Made by a program: the position numbers and the translations under genes. From Pseudolabrys sp. (GTDB lineage Bacteria; Pseudomonadota; Alphaproteobacteria; Rhizobiales; Xanthobacteraceae), in the NCBI GenBank assembly GCA_022841665.1, contig JALHRB010000010.1, forward strand, positions 1 through 64,000: 64,000 nucleotides of DNA, read 5' to 3'. Below, piece after piece: positions 7,200 to 19,978 of the stretch (positions within the stretch are counted from its first letter, which is position 1; each line of letters opens with the position of its first letter). The notes under the pieces are model-generated. The model was not told where the DNA came from. It made no database searches and saw only the letters and a program-made list of their open reading frames with translations.

Positions 7200-8831
7200 A
7201 TGAACAAGCCGCTTTCCGCCGCCGATTCCGCGCCCGATACGGCCAGTTTGACGCCGCTCGCCGCCGAGGTCGAGCGCCGGCGGACCTTCGCCATCATCTC
7301 CCATCCGGACGCCGGCAAGACCACGCTGACCGAAAAGCTGCTCCTGTTCGGGGGCGCCATCAATCTCGCCGGCCAGGTCAAGGCCAAGCGCGACCGCCGC
7401 TCCACCCGCTCGGACTGGATGGCGATCGAGCGCGAGCGCGGCATCTCGGTGGTCACCTCGGTCATGACCTTCGACTACGACGGCCGCGTGTTCAATTTGC
7501 TCGACACGCCGGGCCACGAGGACTTCTCGGAGGACACCTACCGCACGCTCACCGCCGTCGACTCGGCGGTGATGGTAATCGACGCCGCCAAGGGCATCGA
7601 GGCGCGCACGCGCAAGCTGTTCGAGGTGTGCCGGCTGCGCGACATCCCGATCATCACCTTCATCAACAAGATGGACCGCGAGAGCCGCGATCCGTTCGAG
7701 ATTCTGGACGAGATCGAGAAGACGCTGGCGCTCGACACCACGCCGATGACCTGGCCGATCGGCCAGGGCCGCGACTTTGCCGGCACCTATGACATCGCGT
7801 CCGGCGAGATGCGTTTGGTCGGTGAGAACGACAAGACGGTCGACCGCCAGCCGCTCGATCTTTCCGCGCTTGCGGCGAAGAACCCGATGCTCGACGCCAA
7901 GGCGATTGCGGAAGAGCTCAAGCTCGTCAAGGAGGCCTGCCGGCCGTTCGACCTATCGGCATTTCGCGAGGGCCACCTCACGCCGGTATACTTCGGCTCG
8001 GCCTTGAAGAACTTCGGCGTCAAGGACCTGCTCGACGCGCTCGCCTCGTTTGCGCCGCCGCCGCGCGCGCAGACCGCGAACGCGCGCACGGTCGACCCGC
8101 ACGAGAACCAGATGACCGCCTTCGTTTTCAAGATCCAGGCCAACATGGATCCCAACCACCGCGACCGCATCGCCTTCGCGCGCCTGTGCTCGGGCAAGCT
8201 GCGCCGCGGCATGAAGGCCAAGCTCACGCGCACCGGCAAGCCGGTGACGCTGTCGGCGCCGCAGTTCTTCTTCGCGCAGGATCGCTCGGTGGCGGACGAG
8301 GCCTATGCCGGCGACGTCGTCGGCATCCCCAACCACGGAACCTTGCGCATCGGCGACACCTTCACCGAAGGCGAGGACCTGGCCTTTCTCGGCGTGCCGA
8401 ACTTCGCGCCGGAAATCCTGCGCCGCGTGAAGCTCGGCGATCCGATGAAGGCGAAGAAGCTCAAGGAGGCCCTCCAGCAGATGGCGGAGGAGGGCGTGGT
8501 GCAGGTGTTTCGTCCGCTCGACGGCGCGCCCGCGCTGGTCGGCGTGGTCGGCCCGCTACAGCTCGACGTGCTGAAGGTGCGGCTGGCGGAAGAGTACGGC
8601 CTCGACATCGGCTTCGAGCAGCCGGAATTCCAATTGGCGCGTTGGATCGCCTGCGACGACCGCAAGAAGCTCGACGACTTCGTGTCGGCCAACTATTCGT
8701 CGGTCGCCGAAGACCTCGACGGCGACAAGGTGTTCATGGCGCGCAACCAGTTCCTGCTCGACTACACGCGCGAGCGCGCGCCGGGGCTGGTGTTCACGGA
8801 CATCAAGGACGTGAAGAAGGCGGCGGCTTAG
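7200..8831 (+). CDS. prfC: Peptide chain release factor 3 (RF3)
   Basis: 543 residues. RF3 is a translational GTPase that removes RF1/RF2 from the ribosome after termination. The P-loop SHPDAGKTT lies at 34-42, followed by DTPGHEDFSEDTYR (switch II) and NKMDRE (G4). The rest has the RF3 middle and C-terminal domains (ANMDPNHRDRIAF, RNQFLLDYTRERAPGL). The ATG at 7200 was preferred; an in-frame start at 7164 would add 12 residues with no family support. The last 96 bases recur in part at 13929-14021, so the 3' end of this gene looks like a recombination or insertion point. The gene itself is full length and seems intact. Confidence 0.93.
   Translation: MNKPLSAADSAPDTASLTPLAAEVERRRTFAIISHPDAGKTTLTEKLLLFGGAINLAGQVKAKRDRRSTRSDWMAIERERGISVVTSVMTFDYDGRVFNLLDTPGHEDFSEDTYRTLTAVDSAVMVIDAAKGIEARTRKLFEVCRLRDIPIITFINKMDRESRDPFEILDEIEKTLALDTTPMTWPIGQGRDFAGTYDIASGEMRLVGENDKTVDRQPLDLSALAAKNPMLDAKAIAEELKLVKEACRPFDLSAFREGHLTPVYFGSALKNFGVKDLLDALASFAPPPRAQTANARTVDPHENQMTAFVFKIQANMDPNHRDRIAFARLCSGKLRRGMKAKLTRTGKPVTLSAPQFFFAQDRSVADEAYAGDVVGIPNHGTLRIGDTFTEGEDLAFLGVPNFAPEILRRVKLGDPMKAKKLKEALQQMAEEGVVQVFRPLDGAPALVGVVGPLQLDVLKVRLAEEYGLDIGFEQPEFQLARWIACDDRKKLDDFVSANYSSVAEDLDGDKVFMARNQFLLDYTRERAPGLVFTDIKDVKKAAA
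8736..8780 (+). repeat. Direct repeat within the prfC 3' end (left copy)
   Basis: These 45 bases of prfC match 13929-13973 at 44 of 45 positions by hand count, in the same orientation. Similarity begins abruptly at an in-frame ATG and falls to about 32 of 45 in the bases that follow. The pair brackets the ABC-importer/lyase/GntR cassette and could be a recombination core or attachment-site-like sequence. Confidence 0.75.
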
Positions 8832-8860
8832 TTCCCGCGTGCGGCGCGTATCGTCCGGAC

Positions 8861-9733
8861 TCAGCTTTCGGGATGCTCGCGTTCAAACGCCCAAACCCGT
8901 TCGAAACCCATCAGACGGGAAAAATCGTCGAAAGAGTACATCTCGCCGGTCCACGATTTGCTGGAACCCTTGGATCGGATTTCGCCATAGACGGAGCGTA
9001 GCGCCGCGCCCATGGCCAGGAATCCGGAGCCTGGAAAAATCGCCAGCTTGAACCCCAGACGCTCAAGCTCCGCCCGGTCGAGGATCGGGGTGCGCCCTCC
9101 TTCCACCATATTGGCGACCAGCGGCACGTCGAAGGTCCGGCCGATCTTGGCCATCTCCTCTTCGCTCTCCGGCGACTCGATAAAGAGAACGTCGGCGCCG
9201 GCCTTCAGGAAAGCCTCGCCGCGGCGCAGCGCCTCGTCGAGCCCGAGCGAGGTGCGGGCGTCGGTGCGGGCAATGACGAGAAAGTCCTTCGAGGAACGCG
9301 CTTCGACCGCGACCTTGATCCGGCGCGCGGCGTCGGCAATGGGCACCACGCGCCGGCCCGGCGTATGTCCGCATTTCTTCGGGTATTCCTGATCCTCGAT
9401 CTGAATCGCCTGCGCACCGGCGGCCTCGTAGCCCCGCACCGTGAAGTCGACATTGAGAAGGCCGCCATAGCCGGTGTCGCCGTCGGCGATCAGCGGCGTC
9501 GCCGTGCCGGATGAGATCCGGTGCACCCGCTCCGCCATGTCGGTGTAACTCGCCAGGCCCGCATCCGGCAGACCGAGATAAGAGGCCACGACCCCATAGC
9601 CGGTCATATAAAGCGCATCGAAGCCCATCTCGTCGGCGATGCGCGCGGAGATCATGTCGAACACGCCGGGCGCCGAGATCAGGCCAGGCTGCTTGAAGCG
9701 GGCGGACAATTTCCGTGTCTTGTCTTGAGTCAT
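8861..9733 (-). CDS. Isocitrate lyase/PEP mutase superfamily enzyme
   Basis: 290 residues, the size of the small lyases of this superfamily (methylisocitrate lyase, 2,3-dimethylmalate lyase, oxaloacetate decarboxylase, carboxyPEP mutase). Visible motifs are the metal-binding ADGDTGYG (Asp84, Asp86), QIEDQEYPKKCGH with the catalytic-loop Cys121, and VIARTDAR. KKCGH favours C-C bond lyases over true PEP mutases, whose loop differs. The reaction is probably splitting of a 2-hydroxy- or 2-oxo-dicarboxylate. It is the last gene of the ABC-importer operon: 33 bp separate it from the permease gene at 9767, so it probably acts on the imported compound or a product of it. It converges on prfC. Confidence 0.8.
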   Translation of the reverse strand: MTQDKTRKLSARFKQPGLISAPGVFDMISARIADEMGFDALYMTGYGVVASYLGLPDAGLASYTDMAERVHRISSGTATPLIADGDTGYGGLLNVDFTVRGYEAAGAQAIQIEDQEYPKKCGHTPGRRVVPIADAARRIKVAVEARSSKDFLVIARTDARTSLGLDEALRRGEAFLKAGADVLFIESPESEEEMAKIGRTFDVPLVANMVEGGRTPILDRAELERLGFKLAIFPGSGFLAMGAALRSVYGEIRSKGSSKSWTGEMYSFDDFSRLMGFERVWAFEREHPES

Positions 9734-9766
9734 AGTTTGAATACGGCCTTCCAGCAGATGCGCGCT

Positions 9767-10501
9767 TTACGCGACGCGATGATGCAAGCGGTGGTCGAGC
9801 CAAAGCAGGATTGCGCTGGCCGAGACGGCGACGACGGCAAGGAGAAGGATCGTCGCCATGATGGTGGGCACGTCGTGCAGGCCGATGGCGTTCATGATGA
9901 GAAAGCCGAGCCCGCGCTGCGAGGCGAACATCTCACCGATCAGAACGCCCAGCAATGTCAGCGAGAAGCCGATGCGCAGTCCTGATACGATCTCGGGAAG
10001 GGCGCCCGGGATGACGACGGTCAGCAAAGTTTGGCGGCGCGACAAGCGCAGCACGCGCGCGGTTTTGAAATGGACATTGGCGAGGTTGCGCACGGCATTC
10101 ATCGCGAAGATGGCGATCGGAATAATGCCGTGGATCGTGCCGAACGCGATTTTGGCGGGCAGCCCGAGGCCGAAGATCAGCAGGATGAGCGGATAGAGCG
10201 TCACCTTGGGCAGGCTATAGATGGAGACCAGGATCGGCTCGGCCACCTCCGCGCCGGTGCGGTTGAGCCCGAGACCAAGGCCGATCGCGAGCCCGCCCAA
10301 AATCGCCAGCAGAAGCGCATAGACGAAGGCTTTGCCGGTTTCCGCCGCGTGCGGCCAGAACTGCGCGCTGGTGAGCATGCTCCACGCTTTGGCGGCCGTG
10401 CCGGCGGGCGACGTCAGCGCGAAGGGCACCGCCAGATGCAGCAGCTCCCAGGCCACGAGGCCGCCGGTCAACAACAGAACGATATCGAAGGTGCGCTTCA
10501 T
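9767..10501 (-). CDS. ABC transporter permease, nitrate/sulfonate/taurine type
   Basis: 244 residues, about six membrane helices, with the inner-membrane component signature of SsuC/TauC/NrtB permeases (the segment around GALPEIVSGLRIGFS, which contacts the ATPase). It is the second of two non-identical permeases in this operon; its start lies directly after the stop of the first (10503), so the channel is probably a heterodimer. It serves the importer made with the genes at 10503, 11249 and 12097. Confidence 0.85.
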   Translation of the reverse strand: MKRTFDIVLLLTGGLVAWELLHLAVPFALTSPAGTAAKAWSMLTSAQFWPHAAETGKAFVYALLLAILGGLAIGLGLGLNRTGAEVAEPILVSIYSLPKVTLYPLILLIFGLGLPAKIAFGTIHGIIPIAIFAMNAVRNLANVHFKTARVLRLSRRQTLLTVVIPGALPEIVSGLRIGFSLTLLGVLIGEMFASQRGLGFLIMNAIGLHDVPTIMATILLLAVVAVSASAILLWLDHRLHHRVA

Positions 10502-10502
10502 G

Positions 10503-11252
10503 TCAGCGCCCCCACCGGCGCATCAGCCGGCGTTCGTAACTGTAAAATAGGGCGTTCACGACGGTGACAAGAACGATGACGAACAACATCAAGGCGTACA
10601 TCGTGCCGTTGTCGAAATTGTTGAAGGCGTAGGAAATGGAATAGCCGAGGCCGGAAGAAGCCATGATGAACTCGGCCGCGATGACGCCGATGAAGCTGTA
10701 AGCGATCGCCAGCTTGACGCCGGTGAACAGGTAAGGGATCGCGCTCGGCAGCTTGATCCGCAGCGCCGCCGCTGCCGGCCCCATATGGTAGATCGCCGCT
10801 GTCCGCACGAGCACGGGAGGAATGCGGTCGAAGCCGTTGAGGGTGGCGATGATCATGGCGACGACGCCGAACAAAAAGCCGATGGCGATGATCGCGCCGC
10901 GTCCGAGTCCGAACAGCACAATGAACAGCGGATAGAAGGCGAAAAACGGCAATGCGTAATAGCTCGCCAGGAACGGGTCGATCGCTCGGCGCAAGCGCGG
11001 AAAGGCATGGATTGCCGCGCCGATGGCAAAGCCGCCTGAAACCGACAGCACCAGCGCGATCGCCACGTTGCCGAGCGTCTCGGCAATATCGGCATTGGCC
11101 TTGCCCGAGGCGAGTAGCCACGCCAAGCGCACCGCCATGTCCGATGGCGCGATCAGCACGCGCGGTGAGATCGCTCCGGTCCGGCACAGTGCCTCGACCG
11201 CCAGGATGAAGCCGGCCACGAAGAAAAGCCGCAGGAAACCGATCCGGGTCAT
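10503..11252 (-). CDS. ABC transporter permease, nitrate/sulfonate/taurine type
   Basis: 249 residues from the start at 11252, which overlaps the ATPase stop (ATGA-type coupling). An earlier in-frame start would add 18 residues without membrane character. Six helices are apparent; the cytoplasmic loop contains KLPSAIPYLFTGVKLAIAYS, the coupling-helix region of SsuC-like permeases. It pairs with the permease at 9767, with which it shares fold and size but not close sequence. Confidence 0.85.
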   Translation of the reverse strand: MTRIGFLRLFFVAGFILAVEALCRTGAISPRVLIAPSDMAVRLAWLLASGKANADIAETLGNVAIALVLSVSGGFAIGAAIHAFPRLRRAIDPFLASYYALPFFAFYPLFIVLFGLGRGAIIAIGFLFGVVAMIIATLNGFDRIPPVLVRTAAIYHMGPAAAALRIKLPSAIPYLFTGVKLAIAYSFIGVIAAEFIMASSGLGYSISYAFNNFDNGTMYALMLFVIVLVTVVNALFYSYERRLMRRWGR

Positions 11253-12073
11253 GGACCCGCCCCTTGCCGGATGGCCTTCAGGGATTCGTCCCGCAGGACC
11301 GACCACAGCCGCGCGGTGATGTCGCCGAAGGCCGCATTGGCGGCGATGCGCGAATCCCGCTCGCGCGGCCAGCGGGTTTCTATTTCTTCGATGATCCGCC
11401 CCGGCCGCGCCGACATAATGCCGATGCGGTCGGACAGCATCGCGGCCTCGTCGAGGGCATGGGTGATCAAGAGAACGGTGGCGCCTGTCTCGCGCCAGAC
11501 CTTCAACAGCTCGTCGCCCATGATCAGGCGTGTTTGCGCATCGAGCGCGCCGAACGGCTCATCGAGCAGAATCATGCGCGGCTGCATCACCAGCGTGCGC
11601 GCGATGCAGACGCGCTGGCGCATGCCGCCGGACAATTGTGCCGGGTAGGCCTTGGCGAAGTCGACGAGGCCCATCAGCCGCAATGCATGATCGAGCCGGC
11701 GCGCGATTTCGGCCGCATCGACACCCGTCCGGCGCAAGCCGAAGACAATATTGTCGGCGACAGTGAGCCAGGAAAAGCTCGCGTCCTCCTGGAACACCAC
11801 GCCCACGCCGTCAGGCACGCGCCCGTCGAGCGGGCGTCCCTCGAACAGAATTTCGCCGGTGGTCGGCCGCGACAGGCCGGCCAGCACATCGAGCAACGTC
11901 GACTTGCCGCAGCCCGAGGGGCCGATCACCGAATAGAATTCGCCGCGCCGCAGGCGCAGGTTGGTTTCGGCAAGCGCCTGCACGCCCGCCGATCCGCCGC
12001 TGCCGCCGTAGACGCGGGTGACGCCCCGCATCTCGGCATGCACGTCGGTCCTGCGCGTTTCGCGCGCAGACAT
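11249..12073 (-). CDS. ABC transporter ATP-binding protein, nitrate/sulfonate/taurine type
   Basis: 274 residues from the ATG at 12073. Walker A GPSGCGKST is at 51-59, followed by the Q-loop VVFQEDASF, the signature LSGGMRQRV, Walker B ILLDEPFGALD and the switch His in LLITHALDEA. This is the SsuB/TauB type that powers import across the inner membrane. The open frame runs on upstream over the binding-protein gene, but that part has no protein character. It lies between the binding-protein gene (24-bp gap to its stop) and the first permease gene (overlap). Confidence 0.92.
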   Translation of the reverse strand: MSARETRRTDVHAEMRGVTRVYGGSGGSAGVQALAETNLRLRRGEFYSVIGPSGCGKSTLLDVLAGLSRPTTGEILFEGRPLDGRVPDGVGVVFQEDASFSWLTVADNIVFGLRRTGVDAAEIARRLDHALRLMGLVDFAKAYPAQLSGGMRQRVCIARTLVMQPRMILLDEPFGALDAQTRLIMGDELLKVWRETGATVLLITHALDEAAMLSDRIGIMSARPGRIIEEIETRWPRERDSRIAANAAFGDITARLWSVLRDESLKAIRQGAGP

Positions 12074-12096
12074 GCCGGCCTGCAGCACGGCCCCGC

Positions 12097-13041
12097 TCAG
12101 TTCAGGTAGCTGGCGTCGACGACCTTGCTCCAGTCGACCTTGCCGTCGATTTCGCCTATGATCTGCAGTCCTTTCACCATGTGATCCATGGCGTCGTATT
12201 CGAAGTCGCCGGCGCTCCAGTATTTCAACGCGATCAGGTTCTTGACCGCGCCGAGGATGACTTTCTCGTCGGCGCCGTAATGCTTCGCCACGATCTTGGC
12301 GGTCTCTTCCGGATTGGCGTAGACGAACGCGACCGCCTTCTTGCGCGCCTGCACCAGCTTGCGCAGCTTGTCCTTGTTGGCCTTGGCGTACTCGGCCGTC
12401 GTCACGCCGACCGTCTGCACCATCGTCGGCAATTCGTCCTTGACCAGGAAGACCGGCTTGAACTTGCCCGACACCTTGGACCAGATCGGGTCCATGACCG
12501 GAGCGGCCACCACCGCCTTCTGCTCCACCATGGTCAAGCCGCCACCAATTCCGCCAGCCGCGACGGTCTCGACCTTGATGCCGTGCTTTGCGGTCACCAT
12601 CGTCAGCAGCATGTCGGTCACCGATTTCGGCGACGTGAAGGCCACCTTCTTGCCGGCCAGATCCTTGACCGACGCGACGCCGGAATCGGGCGTCGTGACC
12701 CACAGAATTTCACCGGCGGTGCGTACCCCGGAATGGACGATCTTGAGATCGATGCCCTGCTTCATGGCCGCGAGCGCGGCCGACAAGGCGACCTCGCCGT
12801 AAGGCAGGCTGGAGGCCATCACGTTGCGCACGGTGGTGCCGCCCCCCTTGGAGGTGAGCACGCCGTCGATGTCGAGTCCGGCCTCTTTGTAATAACCTTT
12901 CTCGATCGCGACCGCGTAGGGCGCGCCGTACATCAGCACGCCCCAATGCGTCACGCTGATCTGCTCGGCGGCGACCGGCCGCGGCATCCCGACCGTGAGC
13001 GCCAACGCGACAATGAACGCGAGCCTGTACACAATGACCAT
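12097..13041 (-). CDS. ABC transporter substrate-binding protein, NMT1/SsuA type
   Basis: 314 residues with a signal peptide (1-25, PRPVAA end). The mature part has the NMT1/THI5/SsuA pattern: ISVTHWGVLMYGAPYAVAIE, KGYYKEAGLDID, VKDLAGKKVAF and the GGTT ligand loop near residue 70. It captures the substrate in the periplasm for the permeases encoded downstream. First gene of the operon, divergent from a GntR regulator with a TGTATACA dyad between them. The ligand is not readable from the sequence; sulfonates, aromatic acids and pyrimidine precursors are all known for this family. Confidence 0.85.
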   Translation of the reverse strand: MVIVYRLAFIVALALTVGMPRPVAAEQISVTHWGVLMYGAPYAVAIEKGYYKEAGLDIDGVLTSKGGGTTVRNVMASSLPYGEVALSAALAAMKQGIDLKIVHSGVRTAGEILWVTTPDSGVASVKDLAGKKVAFTSPKSVTDMLLTMVTAKHGIKVETVAAGGIGGGLTMVEQKAVVAAPVMDPIWSKVSGKFKPVFLVKDELPTMVQTVGVTTAEYAKANKDKLRKLVQARKKAVAFVYANPEETAKIVAKHYGADEKVILGAVKNLIALKYWSAGDFEYDAMDHMVKGLQIIGEIDGKVDWSKVVDASYLN

Positions 13042-13127
13042 GACCGCCTCCCCATGCGAATGATTATTTATTGCATTTCAGCCAAAAGCGCCTGTTCGTT
13101 GCTCGATCTCTTGGCCCTTGGGACTAT

Positions 13128-13140
13128 GATGTATACAATG
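13128..13140. promoter_or_regulatory. Candidate GntR operator
   Basis: The self-complementary octamer TGTATACA (13130-13137) sits in GATGTATACAATG. FadR/VanR-type GntR proteins commonly bind short dyads of the form TTGTATACAA. It lies 87 bp before the binding-protein gene and 32 bp before the gntR gene, where one dimer could repress both. Confidence 0.5.
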
Positions 13141-13171
13141 CCTTCCGCTGTCTAGCTGGTCGTTGGCGATT

Positions 13172-13852
13172 ATGAACAAACCCGAACGCCTGCGGGCGAC
13201 CGATGTCGCGTACAGCTCGATCCGGCAGGGGCTGGCGGCGGGACGCTGGCCGGCCGGCTCGCATCTTCGCGAAACCGAGCTTGCCGCCGAGCTCGGCATC
13301 AGCCGCACGCCCGTTCGGGAGGCGCTGCGCAAGCTCGCCAGCGAACAACTGGTCCAGTTCGAGCCCCATCTCGGCGCGCGCGTTCCGGGCTGGTCCGATC
13401 GCGACCTGGAAGAGATCTTCGCCCTGCGCGTCGAGTTGGAGAGCTTCGCGGCGGGGCGGGCGGCGCTCCATGCCAGCCCGGGGCAGGTGGCCGTGCTGCG
13501 CCAGCTCGCCCAGGACATCGAGCACGCCGCCTTCGGCGGCGCCGAGCCGGACTATGTCAGGATCACGGAACTGAATAACCGCTTCCACCGCCTGATCGTC
13601 GCCGCCGCCGGCAACCGGCGCTTGGACAGCCTGATCGCCACCCTCATCGACATCCCGCTTGTCGTGCGAACCTTCGCGCGCTTCGATCGGCAGGCCATGG
13701 CACGCAGCGTCAGCCATCACTTCGACCTGGTTGAAGCCATCGCAGGCGGCAATGCCGATTGGGCCGTGGCCGTGATGCGCGCCCACATTCACGCGGGCCG
13801 GCAGGTCATGCTGGGCACGCCGGCGGGCGGCAGCGCGGGGCAAGCGGATTGA
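13172..13852 (+). CDS. GntR-family transcriptional regulator (FadR/FCD type)
   Basis: 226 residues from the ATG at 13172; a TTG nine bases earlier is less likely. The winged helix-turn-helix covers about 8-75 with the hallmark LRETELAAELGISRTPVREALRKL region. The C-terminal all-helical FCD domain shows the spaced histidines (NNRFHRL, SHHFDLVEA, MRAHIHAG) that bind a metal and help hold a small organic acid. It is divergent from the ABC-importer/lyase operon and is probably its local regulator, sensing the substrate or a breakdown product. Confidence 0.88.
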   Translation: MNKPERLRATDVAYSSIRQGLAAGRWPAGSHLRETELAAELGISRTPVREALRKLASEQLVQFEPHLGARVPGWSDRDLEEIFALRVELESFAAGRAALHASPGQVAVLRQLAQDIEHAAFGGAEPDYVRITELNNRFHRLIVAAAGNRRLDSLIATLIDIPLVVRTFARFDRQAMARSVSHHFDLVEAIAGGNADWAVAVMRAHIHAGRQVMLGTPAGGSAGQAD

Positions 13853-13928
13853 GCGAGCCTCGGTCGCGCGCCCCGGTAACGGGCGCCAAAATCGCGCGGT
13901 AGCGGCGCGGTCTTGCATTGCCCGCCGC

Positions 13929-14021
13929 ATGGCGCGCAACCAGTTCCTGCTCGACCACACGCGCGAGCGCGCGTTCGGCCTCGCCTTCACCGACATCAAA
14001 GACAAGCAAAAGGCGGCGTGA
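13929..14021 (+). pseudogene. Relic of the prfC 3' end (RF3 C-terminal 30 codons)
   Basis: The 30 codons from the ATG at 13929 to the TGA at 14019-14021 encode a copy of the RF3 C-terminus: 25 of 30 residues match prfC at 8736-8831 (differences Y/H, P/F, V/A, V/K, K/Q). At DNA level 44 of the first 45 bases match, then only about 32 of the next 45. Nothing upstream of the ATG resembles prfC, and I see no helix or motif that would make it a stand-alone gene. It is best read as the displaced 3' end left when the cassette between the two copies was inserted; a partial duplication is the alternative. Confidence 0.85.
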
Positions 14022-14072
14022 GTTGCCTTATCATGCCCGAAAAAGAGCGGGCATCCGGCGCATGGCGCGCGA

Positions 14073-14594
14073 TCAGTTCAGCATCACGAAGTTCGCCTGA
14101 TCTTCGGCATTCGCCTTCATCAGCGCCGCCGACTTGCGCCGCGCCGGGCCGTAGTAATCGGGTTCGATGACCATCGGGCGCGGCATGAACAGCACGGAGA
14201 CCATCCGGTCCAGCAGGCCCTTGGACGAGACCGGCTTGAGCAGGAATTCGTTGACGCCGACATTGATGGCTTCGGCGACCTTCGCGCGCTCGCCATGGCC
14301 GGTGAGCATGATGACGGGCGTGTCGGGATAGGGAAAGGTCGTCGGCGCGCGCAGCATGCGCATGAAGTTCGGACCCTTCATTCCCGGCATTTCCCAATCG
14401 AGAATGACGACGTCGGGCGCGCGGTTGCACACCGCCTCGAGGCCCGCCGTTCCATCCGGCGCGTCGTAGACTGTCCGCACGCCGATGGCGGCAAGCAAGG
14501 TGCGCACGAGCTTGCGGCTGCCCGGATCGTCGTCGACGACCAGGACTTTGATGTTTGCGAGACGCAAAGCGAGAGCTGCAGGAGCGATATTCAT
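14073..14594 (-). CDS. Response regulator with receiver domain and short C-terminal extension
   Basis: 173 residues from the ATG at 14594 (the frame extends 17 codons further without support). The CheY-like receiver spans about 14-130: acidic pair Asp21/Asp22, phospho-acceptor Asp66 in VVILDWEMPG, the Thr of IMLTGHG and the Lys of FLLKPVS. The remaining 40 or so residues (MPRPMVIEPDYYGPARRK and on) match no output domain that I know. No kinase gene lies beside it. It probably signals by protein contact. Confidence 0.88.
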   Translation of the reverse strand: MNIAPAALALRLANIKVLVVDDDPGSRKLVRTLLAAIGVRTVYDAPDGTAGLEAVCNRAPDVVILDWEMPGMKGPNFMRMLRAPTTFPYPDTPVIMLTGHGERAKVAEAINVGVNEFLLKPVSSKGLLDRMVSVLFMPRPMVIEPDYYGPARRKSAALMKANAEDQANFVMLN

Positions 14595-14736: not shown

Positions 14737-15726
14737 TCAGTTCACCTTCACGCCCGCCGCCTCGATCACCGGCGCCCAGCGCGCGATCTCGCCGTCGATC
14801 TGCGCGCGGAATTGTTCAGGCGAGGATCCGACGGCCTCCATCAGTTGCGTCGCCAGCTTGGCACGCGCCGCCGGCACCCGCACGATCGCCACGACGTCGG
14901 CGTTGATTCTGTCGACGATTCGCTTCGGGGTGCCGCCGGGCGCGATCAGGCCGTTCCAGGCGTCGGCCTCCACGTCGATGCCGCTTTCCTTCAGCGTCGG
15001 CACGTCAGGCAGGAACGGCGAGCGCCTGGGCGTCGACACGGCGAGCATCTTCACCTTGCCGGCTTGCGCCTGCGGCGTAACCGAGATCGCGGGCAGGCAG
15101 GCCATCTGCGCGTCGTTGCGGATGACGGCCGTGATCGCCTGCGGCGACGACGTGTAGGGCACGTGCACGAGCTTGGCGCCGGCCTTGATGGCGATCGCCT
15201 CCATGGCGAGGTGCGAGAGCGAGCCGTTGCCGATCGAGGCGAAATTGTATTTGCCCGGATTGGCCTTCAGCAGCGCCACCAGTTCGGCGACGGAGGCAAC
15301 GCCAAGCTCGTTGCTCACCGCCAGCACGCTCGGCTGCGTGACGAGTTGCGTCACCGGCGCGATGTCCGTCTTCGGATCGTAGGGCAGCTTGGCGAACAGC
15401 AGCGTGTTGGTGGCGAGCGGGCCGCCGATGCTGACGCCGACGGTCGAGCCGTCGGGCGCGGCCTTGGCCACCAGATCGGTGGCGAGGTTGCCGCTCGCGC
15501 CCGGTCTGTTCTCGACCACGAATTTGCTGTCCGGATACTTTTGGGCGAGCCCGTCGGCGACCACGCGCGCAATTATGTCGGGCGTCGAGCCGGGGCCGAA
15601 CGGCACCACCACGTGCACGGTTTTCGGCGGCCAGACCGGCGTGGCATCTTGGGCGCATGCCGGCGCCGCGGCGGAAAGCAGCAGGGCGAGGACCGGCAGC
15701 CAGCGTTTAAAGGGATTTGCGGTCAT
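14737..15726 (-). CDS. Tripartite tricarboxylate transporter substrate-binding protein (Bug/TctC family)
   Basis: 329 residues from the ATG at 15726. Signal peptide at 1-25 (SAAAPACA end). The Bug pattern is clear: PPKTVHVVVPFGPGSTPDIIARVVADGL near the start, NRPGASGNLATDLVAKAAPDGSTV, then LAVSTPRRSPFLPDVPTLKE. It would bind a carboxylated compound in the periplasm. The TctA/TctB membrane partners are absent, which is common for this expanded family in alpha- and betaproteobacteria. It is monocistronic and divergent from the NnrU-family gene. Confidence 0.88.
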   Translation of the reverse strand: MTANPFKRWLPVLALLLSAAAPACAQDATPVWPPKTVHVVVPFGPGSTPDIIARVVADGLAQKYPDSKFVVENRPGASGNLATDLVAKAAPDGSTVGVSIGGPLATNTLLFAKLPYDPKTDIAPVTQLVTQPSVLAVSNELGVASVAELVALLKANPGKYNFASIGNGSLSHLAMEAIAIKAGAKLVHVPYTSSPQAITAVIRNDAQMACLPAISVTPQAQAGKVKMLAVSTPRRSPFLPDVPTLKESGIDVEADAWNGLIAPGGTPKRIVDRINADVVAIVRVPAARAKLATQLMEAVGSSPEQFRAQIDGEIARWAPVIEAAGVKVN

Positions 15727-15820
15727 CGGAAAATGTCCTCTGCCGGGCGCGGACTTGCATAACCCGCCGCTATCCTCTACTGCGGCGCATATAAAATAGG
15801 CAATCTGGCGCGAGTGCAGC

Positions 15821-16402
15821 ATGGGCTTGAGCGTCCTCATTCTCGGGCTGGCGGTCTTCCTCGCCAATCACCTGTTCGTCACGTTCCGCGGCGCGCGCGC
15901 GGCGGCCATCGCCCGCCTCGGGCTCAACGGCTACCGCTTTCTGTTCTCCCTTGTTTCGCTCTTAGGCCTTGTCCTCATCGTCTGGGGCTACGGCGCCTAC
16001 CGCGCGCAAGAGTGGATCGACGTCTGGTCGCCGCCGGCCTTCATGCGCCACGCCACCGTCGGCCTGATGCTGTTCTCGGTGATCCTGATGGCCGCCGTCT
16101 TCATCCCGAGCCATATCAAGGCCAAGGCGAAGCATCCGATGCTGGCCTCGGTGAAGATCTGGGCCTTCGCGCATCTCTTATCGAACGGCGATCTCGGCTC
16201 GATTCTGCTGTTTGGGACGTTCCTCGGCTGGGCGGTTTATGCGCGCATCGCCGCCAAGCGGCGTCTAGACGCCGTGCTGCCGGTCGCGCCGCCGGGCTGG
16301 CTCAACGATCTGATCGTGGTCGTGCTCGGCGTCGTCCTTTATCTCGCGCTCGGCTATGTCTTCCACCCGATCGCGATCGGCGTGCCGGCGTTCACGCGCT
16401 AA
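15821..16402 (+). CDS. NnrU-family integral membrane protein
   Basis: 193 residues with about five to six membrane helices. It has the NnrU family wording: a helix followed by HLFVTFRG, RLGLNGYRFLFSLVSLLGL, the SHIKAKAKHPML loop and KIWAFAHLLSNGDLGSILLFG. Relatives include NnrU, first seen beside denitrification genes, and the plant 15-cis-zeta-carotene isomerase Z-ISO, which holds haem. The conserved His residues before the HLLSNGD helix and in the SHIK loop suit haem or metal binding. No nitrogen-oxide genes are nearby, so a denitrification role is not supported here. panB follows after 39 bp. Confidence 0.82.
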   Translation: MGLSVLILGLAVFLANHLFVTFRGARAAAIARLGLNGYRFLFSLVSLLGLVLIVWGYGAYRAQEWIDVWSPPAFMRHATVGLMLFSVILMAAVFIPSHIKAKAKHPMLASVKIWAFAHLLSNGDLGSILLFGTFLGWAVYARIAAKRRLDAVLPVAPPGWLNDLIVVVLGVVLYLALGYVFHPIAIGVPAFTR

Positions 16403-18616: not shown

Positions 18617-19978
18617 ATGAACTTCACCGTCGCCATCGTCGGCCGGCCCAATGTCGGCAAATCGACCCTGTTCAACCGGCTGGTAGGGCGGCGCCTGGCG
18701 CTGGTCGACGACCGCCCGGGTGTGACGCGCGACCGTCGCGAGGGCGAGGCGCATCTCGGCGATCTCACCTTTACCGTCATCGACACCGCCGGCCTCGAGG
18801 AGGCGGCGCCCGAAAGCCTGCCCGGCCGCATGCGCGCGCAGACCGAGACGGCGATCGGCCAGGCCGACGCCATCTTCTTCATGATGGACACGCGCGCCGG
18901 CCCGACGCCGACCGACCGCGCCTTCGCGCAGGTCGTGCGCAAGTCGGGCAAGCCGACCGTGCTGATCGCCAACAAGAGCGAAGGGCGGCTGGCCGAGGAG
19001 CGGCGGCTGGAAGCCTACGAACTCGGCCTCGGCGAGCCGGTGGCGATCTCGGCCGAGCATAACGAAGGCATGAGCGACCTCTACGACGCGCTGGTCGAGG
19101 CGCTGCCGGACAAGACCCGCGAGCAGCGCGAAGCGCCCGCGCGCGAAGGCCCGCATCCGATCCGCGTCGCCATCGTCGGGCGGCCGAATGCCGGAAAATC
19201 GACCTTGATCAACCGCCTGATCGGCGAGGAGCGCCTGCTCACCGGCCCGGAAGCCGGCATCACGCGCGATTCCATCGCGGTCGATCTCGACTACGCGGGC
19301 CGCAAGTTTCAGCTCTACGACACCGCCGGCCTGCGACGGCGGTCGCGCGTCGAGGAGAAGCTGGAGAAGCTCTCCGTCGCCGACGCGCTCAACGCCGTGC
19401 GCTTCGCCGAGGTCGTGGTGGTGCTGCTCGACGTCGACAACGCCTTCGAGGAACAGGACCAGCGCATCGCCGACCTGGTCGAGCAGGAAGGCCGCGCCAT
19501 CGTCATTGCCGTCAACAAGTGGGACCTGGCCGAGAAGAAGGCGGGCGCGATCTCCAAATTGCGCGAGCAGGCGGGCGAGAAGCTCACGCAGTTGAAGGAC
19601 GTGCCGCTGGTGGCGGTGTCGGGGCTGACCGGCGAGGGGCTCGACCGCCTGATGCAGGCGATCGTCGACGCCTACGAAGTGTGGAACCGGCGCGTGCCGA
19701 CCGCCGCGCTCAATCGCTGGTTCGAGCAGGCGGTGAGCGCACATCCGCCGCCGGCGGTGTCGGGCCGAAGGCTGCGCCTCAATTACATCACGCAGGCTAA
19801 GACGCGGCCGCCGAGCTTCGTGCTGTTCTGCACGCGCGCGGACGCGCTGCCGGATGCCTACAAGCGTTATCTGTTGAACTCGATGCGCGACGCGTTCGAC
19901 CTGCCGGGCACGCCGATCCGCCTGACGCTGCGCGAGAAGGACAACCCGTTCAAGGGCCGCGCGAAGCGCAAGCATTGA
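18617..19978 (+). CDS. der: Ribosome biogenesis GTPase Der (EngA)
   Basis: 453 residues with the two tandem GTPase domains that define Der. The first P-loop GRPNVGKST lies at 9-17, followed by [10 protein letters not shown] and DTAGLE. The second, GRPNAGKST near residue 193, is followed by [16 protein letters not shown] and [12 protein letters not shown]-like C-terminal domain follows ([34 protein letters not shown]). Der is needed to mature the 50S subunit. It closes the panB/YfgM-like/lipoprotein run and is followed by a dispersed repeat. Confidence 0.95.

What the first reader, a model, noticed from the sequence alone, without database searches (positions are those of the whole stretch)
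8736..14021. A catabolic cassette bracketed by two copies of the prfC 3' end
Seen: the last 96 bases of the intact prfC (8736-8831) recur in the same orientation at 13929-14021 as a 30-codon relic with a stop. By hand count the first 45 bases match 44/45 and the next 45 only about 32/45; before the ATG of the relic nothing matches. Between the copies lies one functional unit: lyase, two permeases, ATPase, binding protein and a divergent GntR regulator. Known: prfC is a target for integrating elements (SXT/R391 use its 5' end), and elements that enter a gene's 3' end commonly restore it and leave the old end at the far side. Inference: the cassette came in at the prfC 3' end, by site-specific or homologous exchange inside the 45-base core, leaving this footprint. 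No integrase remains in the interval.
Basis: partly seen in the sequence, partly recalled or inferred. Interest (0 to 1): 0.75.

Follow-up and report, generated by a model that had tools for sequence, protein, structure and literature searches.

The report
Imported operon beside displaced gene end
A transport-and-breakdown operon that has moved between bacterial genera sits right behind the prfC gene, and beyond it lies a leftover second copy of the last 30 codons of prfC; this looks like a scar of gene acquisition, more likely by ordinary DNA exchange than by an integrating element.

Summary
Observation confirmed: 8735-8825 and 13928-14018 are 85% identical over 91 nt (44/45, then 32/45). The second copy is a 30-codon prfC 3' end with its own stop, seen in no other of 43 genomes of the genus (Pseudolabrys). 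In 33 related prfC loci the order is prfC - variable stretch - tctC - NnrU - panB; none has the cassette, relic or response regulator there, so 8832 to about 14736 is accessory. The cassette (8861 to about 13831) is horizontally spread: an unbroken 5-kb block, 78-81% identical in DNA, lies in three genomes of two other genera, and its lyase is closer to those (85-88%) than to the one found in the genus (76%). The identity step read as a crossover core needs no crossover: 39 of 561 pairs of ordinary prfC genes show a step as large. No tyrosine-integrase match lies on the contig. The relic is no fresh copy of the present tail; it shares a Leu7 unique to this prfC, but its tail type is that of other relatives. 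Best reading (confidence 0.4): one-sided homologous, otherwise illegitimate recombination displaced the old prfC end downstream; which copy is native is unresolved. A faint third copy of the repeat start (14062-14079) is unexplained. Modest interest.

The parts
7200..8831 (+). prfC, intact, peptide chain release factor 3
   Evidence: NCBIfam PRK00741/TIGR00503 far above cut-off; 93-94% to G011 prfC
8735..8825 (+). repeat copy 1, inside intact prfC
8861..9733 (-). lyase of the PEP mutase / methylisocitrate lyase superfamily; its stop is the left edge of cassette homology
   Evidence: PF13714, below every equivalog cut-off listed; PDB best 1zlp petal death protein; edge at 8860/8861
9767..10501 (-). 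ABC permease A
   Evidence: PF00528
10503..11252 (-). ABC permease B
   Evidence: PF00528
11249..12073 (-). ABC ATPase
   Evidence: PF00005
12097..13041 (-). NMT1/THI5-like substrate-binding protein
   Evidence: PF09084
13163..13852 (+). GntR/FCD regulator; right edge of cassette homology falls at 13813-13831
   Evidence: PF00392, PF07729; edge
13929..14021 (+). prfC 3'-end relic, 30 codons and stop (repeat copy 2, match from 13928)
14033..14054 (.). hairpin ATGCCCG-N8-CGGGCAT between relic stop and response-regulator stop, no T run
   Evidence: sequence; 7 such motifs in 1.02 Mb of fetched loci, 3 of them in the window
14062..14079 (+). near-copy of the first 18 nt of the repeat, 16/18; its last 7 nt overlap the end of the response-regulator gene
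14073..14594 (-). response regulator (receiver domain), accessory at this place
   Evidence: PF00072; best homologs 62-64%, elsewhere in genomes
14737..15762 (-). tctC receptor gene; synteny with relatives resumes here
   Evidence: PF03401; orthologous position in 26 of 33 loci
15821..16402 (+). NnrU-like gene (label recalled, not scanned), next syntenic marker
   Evidence: downstream of prfC in 30 of 33 loci; 58-76% in the 19 of 20 loci that have it

Best explanation
A foreign operon was captured behind prfC by one-sided homologous recombination. Incoming linear DNA paired with the chromosome inside prfC (homologous end) and was joined at its far end, without homology, to a point 30 codons before the old prfC stop. 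The chromosome keeps one complete prfC, whose last codons came in with the new DNA; the old end of the gene, with its stop and whatever followed it, was pushed about 5.2 kb downstream and is the relic. By domains the operon imports an organic acid and splits it with a C-C lyase, under a divergent GntR regulator. Shown: insertion at this locus, horizontal spread of the operon, a second diverged prfC end, no tyrosine-integrase match on the contig. Inferred: that the relic is the old native end, that the intact end is the imported one, and the one-sided mechanism.
For: Insertion: 0 of 33 related prfC loci have cassette genes or the response regulator there; prfC-to-tctC spacing is 1-160 nt in 14 and 0.8-2.6 kb with other open frames in 12 of the 26 loci with tctC. 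Horizontal: unbroken 5-kb block in L250, L251 (one genus) and L252 (another), edges at 8860/8861 and 13813-13831, with no prfC-tail match there; lyase 83-88% in six genomes of four other genera, 78% in a seventh, against 76% in G001, the only other genus member at E <= 1e-130 in that sample of 391; Pseudolabrys copies do not form one clade (split support 85). Relic of this lineage: Leu at residue 7 (CTG) occurs only in this prfC and the relic among 35 sequences, and the relic's core is 44/45 to own prfC against at most 41/45 to any other. Relic not a fresh copy of the present tail: at site 50 it has the base of 28 of 33 relatives where own base is in none, at site 62 the base of 28 where own base is in 4, and its tail is of the DKxK type of G052, G017, G054, G009. 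PF00589 matches lie on four other contigs only. Precedent for displaced 3' ends by this mechanism in Vibrio T6SS and Rhs loci (PMC5361080, passages).
Against: The intact tail fits its sister species about as well as the gene body does (42/48 to G011, body 0.893), so nothing marks it as imported. The likelihood test puts the relic best beside G017+G054 (p-AU 0.92); 9 of 17 placements, own prfC (0.35) and G052 (0.42) among them, are not rejected, while the base of the WIN+G011+G052 clade is (0.014). No genome with the predicted donor order (prfC followed by the lyase) or the predicted prior order (prfC followed by the response regulator) was found. Cassette homology in other genera ends at the lyase stop, so no prfC anchor has been seen attached to it.
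Confidence: 0.4

Rival explanations
1. The relic is a foreign prfC end, from a Pseudolabrys of the G017/G054 kind, that arrived with the response regulator (and perhaps tctC) in a separate recombination; the cassette entered beside it before or after.
For: Best likelihood placement of the relic is sister to G017+G054; relic is 77/90 to each of G054 and G017, 76/90 to own prfC; tctC is nearest to G017/G054 in identity and does not group with G011/G052 in its tree.
Against: tctC does not reject grouping with G011/G052 (p-AU 0.17); Leu7 is shared only with own prfC.
Confidence: 0.25
2. An old local duplication of the prfC end in this lineage, later split by the cassette and left to drift.
For: Leu7 shared only by the two copies; placement beside own prfC is not rejected (p-AU 0.35).
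Against: Of 14 substitutions between relic and own prfC, 10 have the relic base in at least 2 of 33 relatives, and at one of them own base is in none of the 33, so the relic is not simply a decayed copy of the present tail.
Confidence: 0.15
3. Integrase-mediated insertion at a site in the prfC 3' end, integrase since lost; copies are attL/attR, and the faint copy at 14062 a further att.
For: The relic and a third partial copy begin at the same prfC base (the C before the ATG); geometry of gene-end insertion.
Against: No PF00589 match on the contig, 4 elsewhere (serine recombinases and transposases were not sought genome-wide); identity step found between ordinary prfC genes; no second prfC end in any of 42 other genus genomes (37 of them with any match); the 5 viral stretches with the exact 18-mer show no prfC (fetched stretches only); cassettes in other genera carry no such repeat.
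Confidence: 0.08
4. Assembly artefact: the genome is a draft of 125 contigs with 4.8% contamination, and the contig may join DNA of two related species near 13928.
For: Draft assembly; copies share an exact 28-nt stretch.
Against: The join at 13928 is cassette-side DNA to prfC tail, which a collapse at the shared 28-mer would not produce; blocks on both sides align to the same genus genomes at similar identity.
Confidence: 0.1

Closest known systems
Displacement of gene 3' ends by homology-facilitated illegitimate recombination (Vibrio T6SS effector-immunity arrays, Rhs orphan 3' ends; PMC5361080, passages)
   Same: Conserved upstream sequence as anchor, new module behind it, old 3' end left downstream, no recombinase invoked
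   Different: The anchor here is a housekeeping gene whose product is not known to gain from the swap; one clear and one faint old end; donor and prior states not found
SXT/R391 elements at prfC (SXT at the 5' end: passage in PMC2297512)
   Same: prfC as neighbour of acquired DNA
   Different: Other end of the gene, no integrase match, 5-kb operon without mobility genes
SGI1-type islands at a gene 3' end (PMC2297512, passages; PMC8409611, abstract start in listing)
   Same: Insertion at a gene 3' end with a repeated end
   Different: SGI1 has an 18-bp att site and an int gene; here the repeat is 91 nt at 85% and no integrase matches on the contig
ABC importer plus PEP-mutase-superfamily lyase operons of Alpha- and Betaproteobacteria
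   Same: Gene order GntR / binding protein - ATPase - permease - permease - lyase is found in Pseudorhodoplanes, Hyphomicrobiaceae RSA4 and Afifella; with the regulator absent or further off in Azospirillum and Azoarcus
   Different: Only the location behind prfC is special here

Membership tests
Site-specific integrative element (attL/attR) | integrase gene in or next to the insert | tested here: not met
   no PF00589 match on contig C10; 4 on other contigs. Serine recombinases not sought genome-wide; genes of the insert itself are assigned otherwise
Site-specific integrative element (attL/attR) | near-identical short core at both ends, beyond what the gene's own conservation gives | tested here: not met
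   39 of 561 pairs of ordinary prfC genes show a step as large; only 1 pair combines core of at least 44/45 with tail of at most 0.72
Site-specific integrative element (attL/attR) | same junction base used by other inserts in relatives | tested here: not met
   no second prfC end in other genus genomes; in the 12 relatives with inserts prfC ends are single and followed by unrelated DNA
SXT/R391 at prfC | insertion in the 5' end of prfC | tested here: not met
   prfC is complete; the repeat is the 3' end
Homology-facilitated illegitimate insertion | homologous anchor on one side only | tested here: inconclusive
   prfC lies on the would-be anchor side, but no donor with prfC next to the lyase was found
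Homology-facilitated illegitimate insertion | a second, older-looking 3' end downstream in the same orientation | tested here: met
   relic at 13929-14021, same strand
Homology-facilitated illegitimate insertion | displaced end is native, new end foreign | tested here: inconclusive
   relic placement not resolved; Leu7 favours native origin; intact tail looks native too
Horizontally transferred operon | intact gene order in distant genomes, tree at odds with taxonomy, patchy presence | tested here: met
Methylisocitrate lyase (PrpB) as an exact function | score over the equivalog cut-off | tested here: not met
   262 bits against 354.4

The most novel reading that the evidence does not exclude
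The prfC 3' end is a repeatedly used capture site: successive imports each replaced the last codons of prfC and pushed the older ends downstream, leaving a string of orphan prfC ends (relic at 13929 and the 18-nt trace at 14062, both beginning at the same prfC base), as in Rhs and T6SS arrays but in a housekeeping translation gene.
Probability: 0.12. Interest if true: 0.5.

Novelty: new member of a known kind. Interest (0 to 1): 0.3.

Why it matters
It is a scar that may show how a metabolic operon without mobility genes enters a chromosome. If the displacement reading holds, conserved gene ends act as landing strips for operons by one-sided homology, and leftover gene ends become a searchable footprint of such events.

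Tried and rejected
Rejected: the identity step as a crossover mark; the relic as a conserved short gene; the response regulator as native neighbour; weak second-site matches as further relics (five opened of fifteen in other genomes: four in gyrA by my reading of the frame, one in an unrelated frame; the other ten were not opened, nine of them sharing the same 12-50 query range or nearly so); a phage link (exact 18-mer in 5 viral stretches, none with prfC in the stretch held); plasmid and phage records with the relic (none at E <= 1e-5). The hairpin after the relic is not a usual terminator (no T run; not among the 7 found). The search for a mosaic right flank was inconclusive.

Errors of mine: one search failed (missing key) and was redone; one search printed its main counts and then failed on a sliding-window print that I did not repeat; the ABC-F sequences were taken in the wrong orientation for some loci, so the 'cat' and 'A' trees and the ABC-F identities of that call are discarded and replaced. 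An earlier count gave G016 a lyase beside its binding protein; one search shows only the binding protein.

Not all genomes were covered: 33 of the 42 other genus genomes gave a prfC locus that I fetched and compared. Of the nine left out, G012, G042, G048 and G049 had no match to the relic; G020 matched only at a weak second-site place; G023, G050, G055 and G058 had a prfC-end match but their loci were not fetched. Several fetched loci end early (G015, G044 and G052 contigs stop before a full NnrU).
Full report
What is there. A 91-base stretch at the end of prfC (8735-8825) recurs at 13928-14018 in the same orientation, 85% identical; the relic query finds no third place in the 3.85-Mb draft genome at E <= 0.001. 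The second copy reads MARNQFLLDHTRERAFGLAFTDIKDKQKAA and ends in its own stop. Between the copies are a lyase of the PEP mutase superfamily, two permeases, an ABC ATPase and an NMT1-like binding protein, all on the minus strand, and a divergent GntR/FCD regulator. The family is Xanthobacteraceae: G441, of the same family, matches a record titled Xanthobacteraceae bacterium.

Is it an insertion? I fetched prfC loci of 33 of the 42 other genus genomes. Downstream of prfC the common order is prfC - tctC - NnrU - panB (NnrU and panB are labels recalled). In the 26 loci with tctC its match starts within 160 nt of the prfC stop in 14 and after 0.8-2.6 kb in 12; the open frames there differ between genomes (by my reading a choloylglycine-hydrolase-like gene, an isochorismatase-like gene and membrane proteins, not scanned). 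In six others without tctC, NnrU lies 58-261 nt from the stop; in the seventh (G044) neither is found in the 1.8 kb left of the contig. None of the 33 has a cassette gene or the response regulator there at over 40% protein identity within the stretch fetched.

Where does the cassette come from? Its binding protein has relatives at E <= 1e-40 in 13 of 42 other genus genomes, at other places: G006 has regulator, binding protein, ATPase and both permeases at 82-87% but no adjoining lyase; G046 and G053 have the transporter at about 75-85% (permease A in two pieces in G053); G001 has binding protein and lyase side by side at about 75%, and G016 the binding protein at 73%. In other genera the whole six-gene unit is found: an unbroken block of 5.0 kb, 78-81% identical in DNA, in L250 and L251 (one genus; L251 is the same contig as L190, Pseudorhodoplanes sp. 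bin.109) and in L252 (another genus). Homology begins at 8860/8861, the lyase stop, and ends at 13813-13831 inside the regulator, in all three. The lyase is 88, 88, 86, 84, 84 and 83% identical in six genomes of four other genera and 78% in a seventh, but 76% in G001, the only other genus member with a hit at E <= 1e-130 in a sample of 391 family genomes (the sample may lack some genus members). In a tree of the four transporter proteins over 20 copies chosen from those fetched, the Pseudolabrys copies do not form one clade (split support 85); the sister of the window copy is unresolved (support 48). The operon is therefore horizontally spread, and the relic is no part of it.

What is the relic? 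First, the step from 98% to 71% identity need not be a recombination mark. Over all 561 pairs of 34 prfC genes the same first 45 bases average 0.875 and the rest 0.738; 39 pairs (7%, not independent) have a step at least as large, and G015 and G019 have 45/45 against 0.71. Against this: that pair is the only one with a core of at least 44/45 and a tail of at most 0.72, so the observed combination is at the edge of the normal range. Second, the relic is not a fresh copy of the present tail: of 14 substitutions, 10 show a base present in at least two of 33 relatives; at site 50 own base is in none of the 33, at site 62 in 4. Third, its tail is of the DKxK type of G052, G017, G054 and G009, while the intact tail is of the DVKK type of G011 and others. 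Fourth, Leu at residue 7, codon CTG, occurs only in the intact prfC and the relic among 35 sequences, and the relic's core is 44/45 to own prfC but at most 41/45 to any other. The third point suggests a foreign or an ancestral tail, the fourth a tail of this lineage. A likelihood test on 17 placements prefers sister of G017+G054 (p-AU 0.92); nine placements are not rejected, among them own prfC (0.35) and G052 (0.42); the base of the clade of this genome with G011 and G052 is rejected (0.014).

Which copy is native? Trees of the prfC body and of an ABC-F gene 46 kb away agree that this genome groups with G011 and G052 (supports 100 and 99), G011 and G052 pairing with each other (68 and 99). 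The intact tail fits that position (42/48 to G011, 38/45 to G052; body 0.893 and 0.889). G011 and G052 themselves differ in tail type, so tail type does not decide. The next native gene, tctC, is nearest to G017/G054 by identity but does not reject the expected clade (p-AU 0.17). What follows each copy is suggestive only: the relic is followed by a hairpin and a convergent gene 51 nt on, like an ordinary gene end, whereas the intact prfC is followed after 29 nt by the lyase stop, where cassette homology begins.

Mechanism. I prefer one-sided recombination: homology in prfC on one side, non-homologous joining on the other, which leaves the old gene end downstream. This has a described parallel in Vibrio T6SS clusters, where the authors propose homology-facilitated illegitimate recombination and mention strings of orphaned 3' regions in Rhs loci (PMC5361080; passages read); the process is reported in E. 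coli conjugation and in three competent species (PMC3240628; start of abstract in search listing). The donor order and the prior order were not found. An integrase origin has little for it: no PF00589 match on the contig (serine recombinases not sought), no core clearly beyond normal conservation, no second prfC end in relatives, and SXT uses the other end of prfC (PMC2297512, passage).

Unexplained. At 14062-14079 the first 18 nt of the repeat recur with two mismatches, and 25 nt match the relic region at 22/25. In 1.02 Mb of fetched, partly overlapping sequence only one other site outside prfC (by my filter) comes within two mismatches. The last 7 nt belong to the end of the response-regulator gene, whose 29 relatives inspected do not share the rest. 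I noticed it after the fact, so the small chance (a few in 10,000 by my arithmetic for a site this near) is overstated, but it could be the trace of an older displaced prfC end.

Function of the operon. By domains it is an importer for an organic acid with a lyase that splits a C-C bond (inference); the nearest solved structures are petal death protein 1zlp, a carboxyvinyl-carboxyphosphonate phosphorylmutase, methylisocitrate lyase and 2,3-dimethylmalate lyase. No exact substrate can be given: the lyase is below every equivalog cut-off listed.

Literature. I searched for prfC insertion sites (7 papers; passages of one read), for homology-facilitated illegitimate recombination (49 papers, 12 listed; passages of one read) and for Pseudolabrys with horizontal transfer (21 papers, 8 listed). 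None of the listed titles describes this locus; I did not read the rest.

Noticed in passing
window 14062-14079: Near-copy (16/18) of the start of the prfC repeat, in frame as MARDQFSITKFA-stop, abutting the response-regulator stop; rare by an empirical null.
   Followed up: partly
L032, L035, L036, L138, L140 downstream of prfC: The prfC-tctC interval of relatives carries varied genes (choloylglycine-hydrolase-like, isochorismatase-like, membrane proteins by my reading): a general variable spot.
   Followed up: partly
L250, L251/L190, L252: Complete six-gene operon as a contiguous 5-kb block at 78-81% DNA identity in two other genera, with edges at the coding limits.
   Followed up: yes
prfC C-terminal ends of L041, L137, L138, L044: DKEK-type tail in four species that do not form one clade in the prfC-body tree; hints at tail exchange or convergence in the genus.
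   Followed up: no
window 18628-18687 and 19165-19224: Two G-domain-like motifs, 85% alike over 60 nt; may be a double GTPase of the Der/EngA kind (label recalled).
   Followed up: no
window 20074 and 58296: Further ATGCCCG/CGGGCAT palindromes like the one behind the relic; 3 of the 7 in 1.02 Mb are in this window.
   Followed up: no
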